From an uncultured Pseudomonadota bacterium (GTDB lineage Bacteria > Myxococcota_A > UBA796 > GCA-2862545): 64,000 bases of DNA. Location: positions 124,001 to 188,000 of the forward strand of contig CAJXTB010000008.1 of assembly GCA_913061235.1 (NCBI GenBank). Reading direction: 5' to 3'. The notes under the pieces are model-generated. The model searched no databases, had not been told where the DNA came from, and saw only the letters and a program-made list of their open reading frames with translations. The first letter of the stretch is position 1; each line of letters starts with the position of its first letter. The position numbers and the translations under genes were made by a program. Below, in pieces: positions 25,910 to 32,609 of the stretch.

Positions 25910-26196
25910 GCCGCCTGGCCCTCGCCGTCTGGCTCGTTGTGGTCGTAGACCAAGTGGACGGCTCCACAGCACTCGTCGAGTGGGGCCCCAACGTCTTCGG
26001 CACGGTCTGTACCGACATTCTTCCAGCGCACACGCGCGAAGGCGACCGCATCCAAGTGCGTGTCAGAGCCCGTGACCTGCGTCCCACAGACGCCGTGCAC
26101 GACGAAGTGTGGATGAGCGCCCCCGTGCGCCAGTCCCGCCCCTACCCGTTTTCAACCCGGACCCGAAGAGGGTCCATTCGCAGGAGTCAATCATGA
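25906..26196 (+). CDS. Small DUF3006-like protein between comM and recA
   Basis: A 96-aa protein whose first 60 residues ([17 protein letters not shown] ... [19 protein letters not shown]) resemble the small DUF3006 beta-barrel family, which has no known function. The C-terminal 25 residues are Arg/Ser rich and run into the recA ribosome-binding region. It starts within the comM stop (ATGA) and its stop overlaps the recA start (ATGA), so translation of all three is linked. Whether the protein matters or its reading mainly serves to couple recA translation cannot be decided. Confidence 0.7.
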
Positions 26197-27218
26197 CCAC
26201 AAGCCCCGATGTCCAGCGCGCCAAGGCGCTCAATGCCGCTCTCAAGTCCCTTCACGCGACCTACGGCGACGGCTCAGTCATGCGCCTAGGCGAACGCCCA
26301 AGCGCCACCGTCGACACCATTCCAACAGGCTGTCGGCCACTGGACGTGGCCCTCGGAATTGGCGGCCTGCCGCGTGGGCGGGTTGTCGAGGTCTACGGTC
26401 CCGAGGCTTCGGGCAAGACCACGCTCACTCTTCACCTCATCGCCGAGTGCCAAGCGCGCGGAGGCACAGCCGCGTTTATCGACGCCGAACATGCCTTGGA
26501 TGTCGAGTATGCCAAGCAGCTCGGCGTCGACGTCGACAGCCTGCTCGTCAGCCAGCCCGACTGCGGCGAGCAAGCCTTGGAAATTACCGAGACACTAGTG
26601 CGAAGCGGCGCCATCGACCTGCTCATCATTGACTCGGTAGCGGCCCTTGTTCCGCGCGCCGAGATCGAGGGTGACATGGGCGACCACCACGTCGGCCTAC
26701 AGGCACGACTGATGTCCCAGGCACTGCGCAAGATCACCGCTACCGTCCACCGAAGCGGCACGATGGTCGTCTTCATCAATCAAATCCGTCACAAGATCGG
26801 CGTGACCTTTGGCAACGGTGAAGTCACGACCGGCGGCAATGCGCTGAAGTTCTACTCCTCCGTGCGCCTGGAGATTCGCCGTATTGGCTCAGTACTCGAT
26901 GGCAAGGACGTCATCGGCGCCAAGACCAAGATCAAGGTGGTCAAGAACAAGCTGGCACCGCCGTTCAAGATCGTGGAGACCGAGATTCTCTTCGGAAAGG
27001 GATTCTGCCGCGTGGCGGACCTGCTCAAGCGGGCCGAGGCCGAAGGCATCGTCACCAAGAGCGGTGCGTGGTTCCAGTTCGGTGACGACAGTCTTGGTCA
27101 GGGACGCGAGAAGACACGCGCGCGTATGAACGACGACCCTAAGCTGTGCCTAGCCATCGCAGCAGCCGTTGACGGCACACTCATGTCGGAAGCCAGTGAG
27201 GCAGCGAGCGCCAAGTAG
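26193..27218 (+). CDS. recA: RecA recombinase
   Basis: ATP-dependent strand-exchange protein and SOS co-protease. The 341-aa product begins [20 protein letters not shown]. It shows [10 protein letters not shown], Walker [46 protein letters not shown], and loop-2 [36 protein letters not shown]. The C-terminal acidic tail is short. The start at 26193 sits in the ATGA overlap with the preceding small gene and has GGAG upstream (CAGGAGTCAATC). An upstream in-frame start would add 28 unlike residues. No LexA-type box was identified. Confidence 0.97.
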
Positions 27219-28062: not shown

Positions 28063-29610
28063 ATGACACCGCGATACACACCCACCGTGAACGACGCCTA
28101 CGACGAAGTCCCCTACATGAGTCGCGCTTTTGCGGCTACCCACCCAGCCTCACTTGCGGTCATGGGGACGCTCTTTGGTTTGACGCCTACACCGCCAGAG
28201 AGGGCGAGAGTGTTGGAGCTGGGGTGCGCTGCCGGCGGCAACCTCATCCCCATGGCACACGGAAACCCTGACGCTCAGTTCGTTGGAATCGACCGCAATG
28301 CAAAAGGAATCGAAGTCGGACAGGCACGCATTCGCGACCTTGGACTGACCAACATCTCGCTGCATACCGCCGACCTACTGGACCTGCCGGACCTTGGGCA
28401 GTTCGACTACATTGTGGCGCACGGCGTGTATTCGTGGGTTCCCGCTCAGGTTCAACGGGCCTTGCTGGACGCCTGTAAGAAGCGCCTCACACCTCATGGC
28501 ATTGCCTACATCAGCTACAACACCATGCCTGGCTGGGCCAACCGCAGCGCCCTTCGCGAGATGGCCCTGTTCCATGCGGGTGAGCATCCAGCACTCAGCG
28601 ACAGACTCGGCCAGACCCGTGCCTTGGTTCAGCTCGTTCAGCAAGCCACCCCGGAAGACCATCCACTGCGTGCCGTTCTAGACCACGAACACCGCCACTT
28701 CTCAGCCATGCCCGACTGGTACGTCATTCACGAGCACCTTGGCGAAAACAACGAGGCGCTGTGGTTTCACGAATTCGTCCGACGTGCAGGCGTTGCCGGG
28801 CTTCAGTTTCTCGGAGAGGCCGAGCTTCGCGACATGGTCGCCGTGGACCTTCCACCCGACATTCGCACCCAAGTCGAAGCCCTTGGCAGCGACCAGCTCC
28901 GCCTAGAGCAGTACCTCGACTTCGTACGCCACCGGACCTTCCGACGGACCCTACTCGTTCACGATGACGTCGCCATTGACCGCGACATCGCACTCGACCG
29001 AATTGACCGATTGTACGTCGGTGGCGCACTCGCCACACAGCCGTCCGACCCTACTGTGCCCAACGTCGCCCCCAATGCAACGGATGATGTCGAGCAGGAC
29101 ACCGTCGCGGAGGCCACATGGGACGTCCTGCAACACAGCCTGCCCAGTGGTCTAGCGTTCACTGATCTGCTTCAGCAGGTTGTAGACCGAACGTCTGGCA
29201 CAGCGACCGAACTGCACGACGACGTAGCCAATCACGTGTTCTCAGCGCTGCTCCAAGGCAGTGTGCACCTGTCGGCCTCCGCCATGGTCGCAGCCCCGCC
29301 GAGCCCACGCCCGGTCGCGTACACCATCGCCCGAGACGAAGTCGCGCGCGGCGAGACTTGGGTGACCAACCGTCGTCATCAAGGCGTTCAGCTCGACCCG
29401 TACATGGTGACCGTGCTCCCACTGCTGGACGGCACCCGGTCCACCGCTGACATCATCGCCTTCCTGGCACAGGCCGCCACCACCGGCGTCTTCGAGTTGC
29501 TCGACCTCGACCACAACACAGTGACCGACAGCGACCAGGCTGTTCGCGTTCTGACCGAAGGCTGGCCGCGTGCCCTCGATGTGTTGGCGTACTACGCGCT
29601 GCTGGACTGA
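28063..29610 (+). CDS. PKMT-like SAM methyltransferase with regulatory domain
   Basis: A 515-aa protein with a class I SAM domain (about 1-200) whose opening NDAYDEVPYMSRAFAATHPASLAVMGTLFGL and motif I ELGCAAGGN (52-60) match the group that includes the rickettsial outer-membrane-protein lysine methyltransferases. A methyltransferase regulatory domain (about 220-310) and a C-terminal winged-helix-like part follow (about 420-515, with LPLLDGTRSTADIIAFL). Likely substrate: lysines of a surface protein (by family), but none is identified. It is first in a tight run with a lipoprotein (2-bp gap) and two GTPases. Confidence 0.85.
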   Translation: MTPRYTPTVNDAYDEVPYMSRAFAATHPASLAVMGTLFGLTPTPPERARVLELGCAAGGNLIPMAHGNPDAQFVGIDRNAKGIEVGQARIRDLGLTNISLHTADLLDLPDLGQFDYIVAHGVYSWVPAQVQRALLDACKKRLTPHGIAYISYNTMPGWANRSALREMALFHAGEHPALSDRLGQTRALVQLVQQATPEDHPLRAVLDHEHRHFSAMPDWYVIHEHLGENNEALWFHEFVRRAGVAGLQFLGEAELRDMVAVDLPPDIRTQVEALGSDQLRLEQYLDFVRHRTFRRTLLVHDDVAIDRDIALDRIDRLYVGGALATQPSDPTVPNVAPNATDDVEQDTVAEATWDVLQHSLPSGLAFTDLLQQVVDRTSGTATELHDDVANHVFSALLQGSVHLSASAMVAAPPSPRPVAYTIARDEVARGETWVTNRRHQGVQLDPYMVTVLPLLDGTRSTADIIAFLAQAATTGVFELLDLDHNTVTDSDQAVRVLTEGWPRALDVLAYYALLD

Positions 29611-29612
29611 AC

Positions 29613-30401
29613 ATGCCCCATCCTCGCTCTGGAGCCGCATCTGTGCGACGCATCCTGCCCCTGGTCCTCGCCCTGTGGGCGTGCACTCCCACGTTCGACC
29701 TGACGCCTGACCGCGCCGACAAAACAGAGGGAACAGCCACATTTACGCTACTCGAACAGGCGCTAATCGCCCTGAACGGCCATGAGATGTCGACCACAAT
29801 GACCGGGTCACTCGACCTGTCCATTGCCCCCGGCGCGTTCGCAGACGACACCATTGCCCTCACAGCGACTCACCGCGGACTTCAGATGAAGCGACAGGCG
29901 ATGGGCGACACTCTCACTCTATCCACCTCGGGCGACATTCCACAGACCCTTCAGGCCGCCTTTGCACACGAAAATGCTCCCCGAATAGCGACCGTGTCCA
30001 CGGACCGCAGCCTTCAGATCGAGCGTGAAAGCCCGCTCGGCAGCGACATCGATGTGCTGATGGACCCGGTGATCTGGGCGCCGGCAGGTCGCATCCCTGT
30101 GGGTCACACATGGGGACGGCCCGTGGGTGAGCCCACCGAAGATGGCGTTCAGTGGTACCGCAGCTACACCTTGACGTCCGTCAAAGACGGTGTTGCCATG
30201 ATTCGGTATGCCCACCGTCAAGACGACCCCATCACAGGGGATGAAGGTCCCGAGAACCGCCGGATTCGCGGCGCTCAACAGGTCGACCTACACACCGGCC
30301 TTCCCTACAACCTGCGCGTGCGAAGCTTCGCTCGCGGCGCGGTCGGGGAAGATACGTGGGCCACCTTCAGCTGGCCTGGCCTCGAAACCATCGAACCGTG
30401 A
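29613..30401 (+). CDS. Lipoprotein of unknown function
   Basis: The 262-aa protein begins MPHPRSGAASVRRILPLVLALWACTP, a lipoprotein signal with the acylated Cys in LWAC; a GTG ten codons in is an alternative start. The rest is beta-rich (TATFTLLEQAL, SLDLSIAPGAFADDTIALTATHRG, DVLMDPVIWAPAGRIPVGHTWGR) and ends TWATFSWPGLETIEP. The mature part resembles uncharacterised myxobacterial-type lipoproteins that measure like a barrel or lipocalin fold, but no named family is recognised. It sits between the PKMT-like gene and the GTPase pair, so it may be the anchored or modified partner. Confidence 0.75.
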   Translation: MPHPRSGAASVRRILPLVLALWACTPTFDLTPDRADKTEGTATFTLLEQALIALNGHEMSTTMTGSLDLSIAPGAFADDTIALTATHRGLQMKRQAMGDTLTLSTSGDIPQTLQAAFAHENAPRIATVSTDRSLQIERESPLGSDIDVLMDPVIWAPAGRIPVGHTWGRPVGEPTEDGVQWYRSYTLTSVKDGVAMIRYAHRQDDPITGDEGPENRRIRGAQQVDLHTGLPYNLRVRSFARGAVGEDTWATFSWPGLETIEP

Positions 30402-30408
30402 GCGACGC

Positions 30409-31488
30409 ATGAGCACCAACATTCCCGCCGTGAGCGCTCGCTGGGAAGCGGCCGCCGAAGAGACAGACTCTGCGCTGAGCAAGACTCTCGTCGTCGCCTT
30501 CTTGGGCTCTGCCAGCTCCGGCAAAGATGCCGCGATTCGAGCCCTCTTCGGTGTGGATTTCGGTGAGATCGACCCCATTCCAGGCTCGACAGACCGCCTG
30601 CGTGTCGCCGCTATCGACCACCAGCAGAAGTTCCTTGTGGTCAACGCCCCAGGGTTTGGTGACCTACGAGACGAAGTAGACGCCGAAGCCAGCAAGGCAC
30701 TCGACTCACTCGACGTCGCCATCTACGTGCTCAATGCAGACGGTGGCGCGACCATCGACGAGCGCGGAGACCTCGACCGAGTCCGTGCCCTCGGGCGTCC
30801 CGTGTTGGTCTGCATCAACAAGATCGACCTCATCCGTGAGAGCGACCGCAAGGCGTTCATTGCCGCCACTCTGCTTCAGCTGGGTGTCGCCCCCAAAGAC
30901 GCCATCGTCACCGCGTTTGACCCCATGCCGGCCCTGTCCCCCGAGCCCATTGGGGTTGACGAGGTCATCTCTTGGATTGCCCGCACTCTTGCGAAGGACG
31001 GCAAAGAACTGCTGTTCGCCAAGTACATGCGGAACAAGGCCAGCGCATGCGAGCCGCTCATCTATCAAGCCGCCAAGCGGGCAGCTGTCGCCGGCGCCAT
31101 TCCCGTTCCTGGAGCAGACGCAACCGCGGTCACGCTCATCCAGGTCAAGCTCATCGCAGACATTGCCGCGGTGTTCGGCCGTGATCTGGACCGAGACGTC
31201 ATGCTCTTCCTCGTTGGAGAAGCGCTCGCCGGTGGAAGCAAAGGCTTCGTTCGCTGGGCCGTCAACGCACTCAAGGCAGCCGGCTGGGTTCCCGGCGGTC
31301 AGATTGTCCACGTTGCGACCAGCACCCTTGGCGCCACCATCTCAAGTGCAGCCACCTGGGGCGTCGGCAAGGCCGCTGTCGCCTATATGCAGCGCGGTGA
31401 CATGACTCCTGAGCAGTTCCGTACCGTGTTCGAGGCCGCCGCGCAGGCGTACCGCGTGCACCAAGACGGCGGCGTCGCCACCCCATGA
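30409..31488 (+). CDS. GTPase with GKD P-loop and DUF697-like C-terminal region
   Basis: A 359-aa Era/Der-type GTPase domain fused to a helical membrane-associating region. G1 reads GSASSGKD (33-40), so the Mg2+-ligand Ser/Thr after the Lys is Asp40. G3 is NAPG (79-82), without the usual Asp, and G4 NKID (137-140) is normal. From about residue 205 the sequence IYQAAKRAAVAGAIPVPGADATAV and the following hydrophobic helices look like DUF697. The start MSTNIPAVSARW lies 7 bp after the lipoprotein stop; a far upstream start overlaps that gene and is rejected. Its stop overlaps the second GTPase gene by ATGA. Confidence 0.85.
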   Translation: MSTNIPAVSARWEAAAEETDSALSKTLVVAFLGSASSGKDAAIRALFGVDFGEIDPIPGSTDRLRVAAIDHQQKFLVVNAPGFGDLRDEVDAEASKALDSLDVAIYVLNADGGATIDERGDLDRVRALGRPVLVCINKIDLIRESDRKAFIAATLLQLGVAPKDAIVTAFDPMPALSPEPIGVDEVISWIARTLAKDGKELLFAKYMRNKASACEPLIYQAAKRAAVAGAIPVPGADATAVTLIQVKLIADIAAVFGRDLDRDVMLFLVGEALAGGSKGFVRWAVNALKAAGWVPGGQIVHVATSTLGATISSAATWGVGKAAVAYMQRGDMTPEQFRTVFEAAAQAYRVHQDGGVATP

Positions 31489-32609
31489 GCGACAGTCTGT
31501 ATGAGTTGCTCAGGCGCTGTCATCGCGTAGAGCTCGAAGCACTGGCAACGCATCTCAAGATTCGGGAGCAAGACCTTGGGCTGTCCAAGCTTGCCCGTCG
31601 CATTGATCAGCGTCTTCGTCAGATGGGTGGACACGGCATCGTCAACATCTTGACGCGTGGCGGCGAGGGCCCGCCCTGGTCGGACATTGTCATGCGTCTG
31701 TGCCGTAAAGCCGGAGTTGCAAGCAACGATGACATCGGAGTCATGGAACACGGACTGATGGAGCACTGGGTCACAACCACCTGGTCTTCCCTCACCACTG
31801 AACAGCAGAACAGCGCATGGGACGAGCTTGGGCTGCCCCGTCCCATGTCAGACGCCGGCGAGCCGGACCTGGACCTCAGCCAAGCTCCGACCGGCACACT
31901 CATGGCGCACATGGGCGACATAAACCCCGTCTTTGCCCTACCGTTCTTACCGTTCCTGGGCCCCATTGGGACCCTGCTGTACGTGGGGCGTCCACGCGAC
32001 GACCAACTTCTGCCCGCAGTCCTTGAGGTCGCACGACTTCGCCAGCTCGCACGACACCGCATCACGATTGGTGTTGTCGGAAGCCCCTCGTGCGGCAAAG
32101 ACGCCGGTATTCGCGCGCTGTTCGGCATCGACAGCGGAAACATCGACCCTGTGGCTGGGTCCACGTCCACTGTGGCAATCACCAAGCTTCCCAACGCTTC
32201 CGCACTCTACGTGGTCAACACCCCTGGCCTCGGAGACGTCATCGAAGCGGTGACCGAAGAAGCCCGTCAGGTTCTTGATCTGGTCGACGTCTACATCTAC
32301 GTGGTCAACGCCCAAGGCGGTGTACAGACCCGAGAGAAAGCAGACTACGACGACGTTGTCTCTCGCGGACGCCCGGTGCTCGCCGTCATCAACAAGATCG
32401 ACACGCTCCGAGAACGCGACCGCGAACGCTACCTGGCAGACGCTCGCATCAAGCTCAACGCTCCCGAAGACGCTTTCTTAGCCGCAGCCTTCGACCCGCT
32501 TCCTGCATTGAGCGACTCCCCCATCGGCATTGCCCCCATCCGCGAGTGGCTACACGGCCAGCTACGGTTGATGGGTAAGGATGAGAGCGAACTCAAAGCG
32601 CTCTCATGA
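31485..32609 (+). CDS. Second GKD-type GTPase with a long helical N-terminal domain
   Basis: A 374-aa paralogue arranged the other way round. Residues 1-190 form a helical domain (DSLYELLRRCHRVELEALATHL; a hydrophobic patch PVFALPFLPFLGPIGTLLYV at about 148-167) reminiscent of YaaW-like proteins. The GTPase domain follows with G1 GSPSCGKD (199-206), G3 NTPG (245-248) and G4 NKID (303-306). Asp206 replaces the P-loop Ser/Thr exactly as in the upstream gene. The segment after G1 (AGIRALFGIDSGNIDPVAGST) is nearly shared by both. Coupled translation suggests the two form a heterodimer or act on one membrane. Confidence 0.82.
   Translation: MSDSLYELLRRCHRVELEALATHLKIREQDLGLSKLARRIDQRLRQMGGHGIVNILTRGGEGPPWSDIVMRLCRKAGVASNDDIGVMEHGLMEHWVTTTWSSLTTEQQNSAWDELGLPRPMSDAGEPDLDLSQAPTGTLMAHMGDINPVFALPFLPFLGPIGTLLYVGRPRDDQLLPAVLEVARLRQLARHRITIGVVGSPSCGKDAGIRALFGIDSGNIDPVAGSTSTVAITKLPNASALYVVNTPGLGDVIEAVTEEARQVLDLVDVYIYVVNAQGGVQTREKADYDDVVSRGRPVLAVINKIDTLRERDRERYLADARIKLNAPEDAFLAAAFDPLPALSDSPIGIAPIREWLHGQLRLMGKDESELKALS

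What the first reader, a model, noticed from the sequence alone, without database searches (positions are those of the whole stretch)
28063..32609. Operon with two tandem GTPases whose P-loop Ser/Thr is Asp, led by a PKMT-like methyltransferase and a lipoprotein
Both GTPases carry GxxxxGKD instead of GKS/T, although the rest of the G1-G4 set is present and the segment after G1 is shared. The Ser/Thr normally binds Mg2+. The same change in both, with reversed domain order (helical domain first in one, DUF697-like domain last in the other), suggests an evolved pair rather than decay. The translationally linked operon with a methyltransferase and a lipoprotein has no function known to me.
Basis: partly seen in the sequence, partly recalled or inferred. 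Interest (0 to 1): 0.75.

Follow-up and report, generated by a model that had tools for sequence, protein, structure and literature searches.

The report
Paired GTPases with swapped Mg-site acid
Two neighbouring bacterial GTP-binding proteins share a rare, strictly conserved double change in the part of the pocket that normally holds magnesium, and their closest outside relatives are fused to an anti-phage sensor domain and sit in phage-defence gene clusters.

Summary
So the acid near the metal site has in effect moved from switch II (G3) to the P-loop (G1). The Asp is invariant in 44 A and 41 B sequences, and G3 is never Asp. Lys, G2 Thr and NKxD are intact. About 60 canonical GKS/T GTPases pulled out by a G-domain model keep Asp in G3. 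GKD proteins form one clade (98/97) spanning Myxococcota, Spirochaetes, Acidobacteria and Gammaproteobacteria. A and B are co-retained in 39 of 40 genomes, even where unlinked, and also pair in a spirochaete. The methyltransferase and lipoprotein are local passengers. B's helical N-terminus is a shortened JukA/YaaW domain (JukA is the Juk anti-jumbo-phage sensor). Four JukA-GKD fusion relatives sit beside BREX, DISARM or ShosTA genes, or on a provirus; three share a cassette with a Gly-zipper protein and an RtcR-like regulator. Best reading: an obligate GTPase pair with a rebuilt metal site, from a defence-linked family. Metal chemistry, dimerisation and a defence role here are inferred.

The parts
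30409..31488 (+). GTPase A (359 aa): G domain then DUF697-like helical domain
   Evidence: Pfam MMR_HSR1 28.2 bits (cut-off 21.9), DUF697 27.7 bits (cut-off 27.7); start moved from 30208 to 30409 because the longer ORF overlaps the lipoprotein gene; AF2 model pLDDT 84
30505..30528 (+). A: G1/P-loop GSASSGKD; Asp40 at 30526-30528
   Evidence: translation; D in 44/44
30643..30663 (+). A: altered G3, NAPGFGD; Asn79 at 30643-30645 where canonical GTPases have Asp
   Evidence: N in 43/44, T in 1
30817..30828 (+). A: intact G4 NKID
31021..31416 (+). A: DUF697-like domain, hydrophobic helices
   Evidence: Pfam match aa 205-336; all-helical in model
31485..32609 (+). GTPase B (374 aa): JukA/YaaW-like helical N-terminus then G domain
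   Evidence: Pfam MMR_HSR1 31.6 bits; PADLOC JukA E 1.2e-10; AF2 model pLDDT 84
31485..31488 (+). ATGA stop/start overlap of A and B; NTGA overlap in 18 of 32 homologous loci
31572..31838 (+). B: shortened JukA/YaaW-like domain (aa 30-118)
   Evidence: the family relative P0005 matches JukA over most of the domain at E 1e-46
32079..32102 (+). B: G1/P-loop GSPSCGKD; Asp206 at 32100-32102
   Evidence: D in 41/41
32217..32237 (+). B: altered G3, NTPGLGD; Asn245 at 32217-32219
   Evidence: exception V in L148
32391..32402 (+). B: intact G4 NKID
28063..29610 (+). PKMT-like SAM methyltransferase; same local operon, not part of the conserved module
   Evidence: Pfam MethyTransf_Reg E 1.3e-21, PKMT_2nd E 5.5e-18; absent beside A/B elsewhere; 4 paralogues in own genome
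29613..30401 (+). predicted lipoprotein (LWAC lipobox), orphan; same local operon, not part of the conserved module
   Evidence: no Pfam/NCBIfam match; no relative in 37 genomes of the order

Best explanation
A and B are an obligate pair of GTP-binding proteins from a distinct clade of TrmE/Era-type DUF697 GTPases in which the metal site was rebuilt once and then kept. The P-loop Ser/Thr became Asp, and the G3 (switch II) Asp became Asn. SHOWN: the two substitutions, their near-absolute conservation, one origin, intact Lys, G2 Thr and NKxD, an intact G-domain fold in the models, co-retention of A and B, the JukA/YaaW-type N-terminus of B, the DUF697 C-terminus of A, and defence-island or provirus location of the JukA-GKD fusion relatives. 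INFERRED: the proteins still bind guanine nucleotide, with the P-loop carboxylate taking over the metal-facing role of the G3 Asp; because switch II no longer carries the acid, hydrolysis and the GDP/GTP switch are slow or gated by the partner rather than intrinsic; A and B form a hetero-oligomer; B's JukA-like domain senses a trigger and A's DUF697 helices act on a membrane. By descent this would be a stress or phage sensor-effector pair resembling Juk, with a GTPase relay.
For: GKD invariant in 44 A and 41 B; G3 never Asp. GKS/T relatives, including the sister DUF697 pair L101, keep G3 Asp. One GKD clade at 98/97 with the trait columns removed. G-domain fold Z 18-19 to YsxC, 16-18 to Era. 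B in 39 of 40 genomes with A; six have them on different contigs, five of these with A and B both well inside their contigs; A/B Mantel rho 0.81. Overlapping A-B pair also in a spirochaete, L156. B's N-terminus matches JukA at E 1.2e-10; relatives P0005, L104, L216 and L105 match JukA at E 1e-46 to 1e-32. Contexts: PglZ+BrxL at L104, DrmA/B/C plus an integrase-like ORF at L102, ShosT plus a DprA-family gene at L105, IMG/VR contig with an integrase-like ORF at L216. Cassette RtcR-like AAA / 116-140-aa Gly-zipper protein / JukA-GKD GTPase at L102, L104 and L216. JukA is described as the Juk sensor in PMC13282480.
Against: In the window's own order the pair is not seen in defence islands. It lies near recA here, and in some genera it keeps syntenic neighbours, as a resident gene would. 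The Gly-zipper protein is absent near A/B. B's JukA-like region is short and diverged. No biochemistry exists. The joint G1/G3 change has one origin, so it cannot be counted as repeated covariation.
Confidence: 0.45

Rival explanations
1. Resident housekeeping pair: A and B do a vegetative job in this order (for example ribosome-associated quality control or envelope maintenance), and the defence contexts belong only to the JukA-GKD fusion branch.
For: Conserved neighbours around the pair within genera. In seven loci a ~117-aa gene follows B directly, read by eye as the same GGQ protein and confirmed as an RF-1 domain in L149. Best fold matches are YsxC, Era and EngA-type ribosome GTPases. Present in 22 of 27 high-quality relatives.
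Against: Absent from five high-quality relatives, so not essential. Downstream partners differ between genera. B carries a JukA-type domain. YsxC/Era similarity only reflects the shared G-domain fold.
Confidence: 0.3
2. Pseudo-GTPases: the double change abolished nucleotide hydrolysis or binding and the pair is a structural scaffold.
For: Both residues that position Mg2+ in ordinary GTPases are replaced. PseudoGTPases that keep a nucleotide structurally are known among septins (PMC10731463).
Against: P-loop Lys, G2 Thr and NKxD are invariant in all 85 sequences; a fully dead pocket would be expected to drift. The gained Asp is itself invariant.
Confidence: 0.2
3. Local drift or sequencing artefact.
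For: None found beyond the window itself.
Against: The change is identical in dozens of independent genomes across four phyla.
Confidence: 0.01
4. The methyltransferase modifies the GTPases or lipoprotein, and the four-gene operon is the functional unit.
For: Tight co-directional spacing here.
Against: Neither gene lies beside A/B in 40 other loci; the lipoprotein is an orphan and the methyltransferase has paralogues elsewhere.
Confidence: 0.04

Closest known systems
DUF697 TrmE/Era-type GTPases (Pfam PF01926 + PF05128), e.g. the twin genes in L101
   Same: G domain followed by DUF697; also found as tandem pairs; nearest canonical sister of the GKD clade
   Different: Canonical relatives have GKS and DTPG; A and B have GKD and NxPG; B lacks DUF697
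JukA/YaaW (UPF0174, DUF3944) proteins, sensor of the Juk anti-jumbo-phage system
   Same: N-terminal helical domain of B, and most of the domain in JukA-GKD relatives
   Different: JukA profiles are ~250 aa long, without a GTPase; no JukB-like partner recognised beside A/B
YaaW-GTPase fusions reported by Delaye et al. 2008 (PMC2268670) in Shewanella sp. and Campylobacter coli
   Same: YaaW domain and GTPase domain in one protein, as in B
   Different: Reported only as a fusion; no mention of altered G1/G3 in the passages read, and I could not check whether those proteins are GKD
LeoABC bacterial dynamin-like GTPases
   Same: Weak PADLOC similarity over the G domain; paired GTPases
   Different: E-values 4e-6 to 0.05 only; no dynamin stalk matched
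Immunity-related GTPases (Irga6, IRGB10)
   Same: A aligns over 260-280 residues with Z 16-17
   Different: rmsd 7-8.5, about 12% identity; only the G domain is convincingly alike
Septin pseudoGTPases, e.g. yeast Cdc3 with its unusual G1 Asp128
   Same: Precedent for a G1 Asp contacting the gamma phosphate (PMC10731463)
   Different: Eukaryotic; from memory a different P-loop position, not the Ser/Thr; a G3 Asp (Asp210) is still discussed for Cdc3 there

Membership tests
MMR_HSR1 / TrmE-Era-type GTPases | Profile score above curated cut-off | tested here: met
   28.2 and 31.6 bits against 21.9
MMR_HSR1 / TrmE-Era-type GTPases | G-domain fold | tested here: met
   Z 18.1 (A) and 19.1 (B) to YsxC, rmsd 2.7-2.8
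MMR_HSR1 / TrmE-Era-type GTPases | G1 GxxxxGK[ST] | tested here: not met
   GKD in all 85 A/B sequences
MMR_HSR1 / TrmE-Era-type GTPases | G3 DxxG | tested here: not met
   NxPG, T or V once each
MMR_HSR1 / TrmE-Era-type GTPases | G2 Thr and G4 NKxD | tested here: met
   invariant
DUF697 (PF05128) | Profile score above cut-off in A | tested here: met
   27.7 bits, exactly the cut-off
JukA/YaaW domain | Match over the whole domain in window protein B | tested here: inconclusive
   aa 30-118 only, profile 53-141 of 245, E 1.2e-10
JukA/YaaW domain | Match over most of the domain in the nearest JukA-GKD relatives | tested here: met
   E 1e-46 P0005, 1.8e-46 L104, 1.6e-41 L216, 3.1e-32 L105
Juk defence system | JukA beside a recognised JukB effector | tested here: inconclusive
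   None of the four operon proteins or the cassette and neighbouring proteins scanned at L102, L104, L105 and L216 is called JukB; coverage of JukB by the library not verified
Juk defence system | Protection against nucleus-forming phages | not testable with these tools
   needs experiment
PseudoGTPases | Loss of GTP hydrolysis or binding | not testable with these tools
   needs biochemistry
Immunity-related GTPases (IRG) | IRG helical domains around the G domain | tested here: inconclusive
   A aligns to Irga6/IRGB10 over 260-280 residues but at rmsd 7-8.5

The most novel reading that the evidence does not exclude
A clade of GTPases in which the metal-site acid moved from switch II to the P-loop runs a new kind of nucleotide switch: the metal is held by a P-loop carboxylate and the state is read by a paired GTPase. 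Bacteria use it, coupled to JukA-type sensors and membrane modules, in a previously undescribed Juk-like anti-phage system.
Probability: 0.3. Interest if true: 0.82.

Novelty: new variant of a known kind. Interest (0 to 1): 0.66.

Why it matters
The P-loop Ser/Thr and the G3 Asp are among the most conserved residues in all GTPases and together position Mg2+. A natural, ancient clade that replaced both, and gained an invariant Asp in the P-loop, directly tests which features of the GTPase switch are necessary. The link to JukA-type sensors and to BREX, DISARM and ShosTA islands also points to an unrecognised GTPase branch of a very common phage-defence sensor family.

Tried and rejected
Drift or artefact: rejected by dozens of homologues. 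MTase plus lipoprotein as part of the machine: rejected. Relatives on plasmids: none for A or for the G domain of L104; P0005 matched only over its JukA/YaaW part. Phages: only weak or JukA-part matches. Viral contigs with the G-domain profile: nothing; with the JukA-GTPase profile one provirus contig, L216. E. coli genomes: no relative of the Lelliottia gene. Sampled Gammaproteobacteria, the order of Halopseudomonas, Spirochaetes and Acidobacteria: no further GKD member among the matches inspected, so the clade looks rare there; at most 5-10 candidates per genome were scored. PDB by sequence: only Der/Era-type G domains; no entry matched the JukA domain. Literature: no paper found for a GKD G1 in GTPases (open-access library only). 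IRG-like overall fold for A: not claimed. Gly-zipper partner near A/B: not found. AF2 models contain no ligand, so metal geometry was not tested.
Full report
OBSERVATION. The region 28063-32609 holds four co-directional genes: a PKMT-like methyltransferase (28063-29610), a predicted lipoprotein (29613-30401), GTPase A (30409-31488) and GTPase B (31485-32609), the last two overlapping by ATGA. The mechanical ORF for A starts at 30208, but that start lies inside the lipoprotein gene; 30409 is the better start. A reads GSASSGKD in G1 and NAPGFGD in G3; B reads GSPSCGKD and NTPGLGD. G2 Thr and NKID are intact in both.

CONSERVATION. A search of 58 relatives with A found it in 40 genomes, and 39 of these also have B. 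In full-length sequences fetched from named genome records, G1 Asp is present in 44/44 A and 41/41 B; P-loop Lys, G2 Thr and NKxD are invariant; G3 is Asn in 43/44 A (Thr in the spirochaete L156) and 40/41 B (Val in L148). An HMM of the GKD G domain pulled in about 60 canonical GTPases (Der, Era, gammaproteobacterial tandem GTPases, DUF697 twins); every one whose motifs could be read has GKS/T with G3 Asp. A distant Acidobacterial DUF697-like GTPase is likewise GKS/DTPG. The two substitutions therefore go together without an observed intermediate.

ONE CLADE. A maximum-likelihood tree of 47 G domains, with the two trait columns removed, puts all 20 GKD rows on one side of a branch (98/97), next to a DUF697 twin pair of another family in the same phylum (L101, GKS/DTPG). 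The double swap thus looks like one old event. That is strong evidence for stable maintenance but not for repeated covariation. In this tree the spirochaete A and B G domains group with each other (97/90), which may be long-branch attraction or gene conversion; I did not resolve it.

THE PAIR. A and B overlap by NTGA in 18 of 32 loci, and most other pairs lie within about 60 bp. In six genomes A and B lie on different contigs, and in five of them (G008, G026, G030, G043, G056) both genes are well inside their contigs, so the linkage is truly broken, yet both are kept. A and B distances correlate (Mantel rho 0.81, 0 of 2000 permutations as high); shared species history would give the same sign, so this is supporting only. 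A spirochaete (L156) has an overlapping GKD-DUF697 / YaaW-GKD gene pair. Co-retention without linkage is the best evidence that they act together.

PASSENGERS. Neither the methyltransferase nor the lipoprotein is found beside A/B in any of 40 homologous loci. The lipoprotein has no relative in 37 other genomes of the order. The methyltransferase has four paralogues in its own genome, and relatives elsewhere are not beside A/B.

DOMAINS. A ends in a DUF697-like all-helical domain (exactly at the Pfam cut-off). B begins with a helical region that matches JukA profiles over aa 30-118 (E 1.2e-10). In a member from another family of the phylum (P0005, locus L102) the JukA match covers most of the domain (E 1e-46) and the G domain is again GKD/NYPG. 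YaaW-GTPase fusions were noted in Shewanella and Campylobacter coli in 2008 (PMC2268670). AlphaFold2 models of A and B (mean pLDDT 84) keep the G-domain fold: Z 18-19 to YsxC and 16-18 to Era. A also aligns to immunity-related GTPases over 260-280 residues, but at rmsd 7-8.5, which I treat as a G-domain match plus generic helices.

DEFENCE CONTEXT OF THE SISTER BRANCH. All four JukA-GKD fusions found lie in defence or mobile contexts: L104 (Halopseudomonas) next to PglZ and BrxL of BREX; L102 next to DrmA, DrmB and DrmC of DISARM and an integrase-like ORF; L105 (Lelliottia) near ShosT and a DprA-family gene; L216 on an IMG/VR contig with an integrase-like ORF. In L102, L104 and L216 the gene is preceded by a 116-140-aa Gly-zipper membrane protein (pairwise BLAST E 1e-5 to 1e-10; Pfam Gly-zipper match for the L102 copy) and a divergent RtcR/PspF-like sigma-54 activator. 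JukA is described as the sensor of the Juk system, acting with diverse effectors (PMC13282480). By contrast, A/B in the window's order sit in neighbourhoods that are partly syntenic within genera, and no Gly-zipper gene is nearby. I did not scan every neighbour of A/B for defence genes. The defence reading for the window pair is therefore by descent, not by context.

MECHANISM. From established GTPase structures (own knowledge): the G1 Ser/Thr and G2 Thr ligate Mg2+ directly and the G3 Asp holds it through water. Replacing the first by Asp and the last by Asn keeps one acid at the site but moves it from the mobile switch II to the rigid P-loop. I infer retained nucleotide binding with altered metal preference and weakened gamma-phosphate sensing by switch II, so that the state is probably set by the partner GTPase. 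Septin Cdc3 offers a precedent for a G1 Asp reaching the gamma phosphate (PMC10731463), although, from memory, at another P-loop position. None of this chemistry was tested here.

VERDICT. The pair is a new variant of a known kind: GTPases of the TrmE/Era fold that fail two defining motifs, with a JukA-type domain in one partner. The mechanism is inference.

Noticed in passing
L113, L125, L127, L130, L144, L146, L149, directly after gene B: A ~114-127-aa gene with a GSGPGGQH-type motif follows B directly, sometimes with a 4-bp overlap; the L149 copy was scanned and is an RF-1 domain protein (Pfam E 2.5e-20), ArfB-like by eye. The function of this subclade-specific linkage is unknown.
   Followed up: partly
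L102:8383-11836, L104:3025-6579, L216:2000-5486: Cassette of RtcR/PspF-like sigma-54 activator, small Gly-zipper membrane protein and JukA-GKD GTPase in defence islands or provirus; a candidate phage-defence system in its own right.
   Followed up: partly
L178, L179, L173 and others (Gammaproteobacteria): Canonical tandem GTPase pairs (GKS, D-type G3) with ~1.3 kb spacing are common; twin GTPases seem to be a recurrent theme in this superfamily.
   Followed up: no
26109-27218: recA lies just upstream of the operon region.
   Followed up: no
L156 A and B G domains: The spirochaete A and B G domains group together in the tree although their other domains match A and B; gene conversion or long-branch attraction.
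   Followed up: no
L148: The only B sequence with neither Asn nor Asp at G3 (VGPGMGD); its partner A is ordinary for the clade.
   Followed up: no
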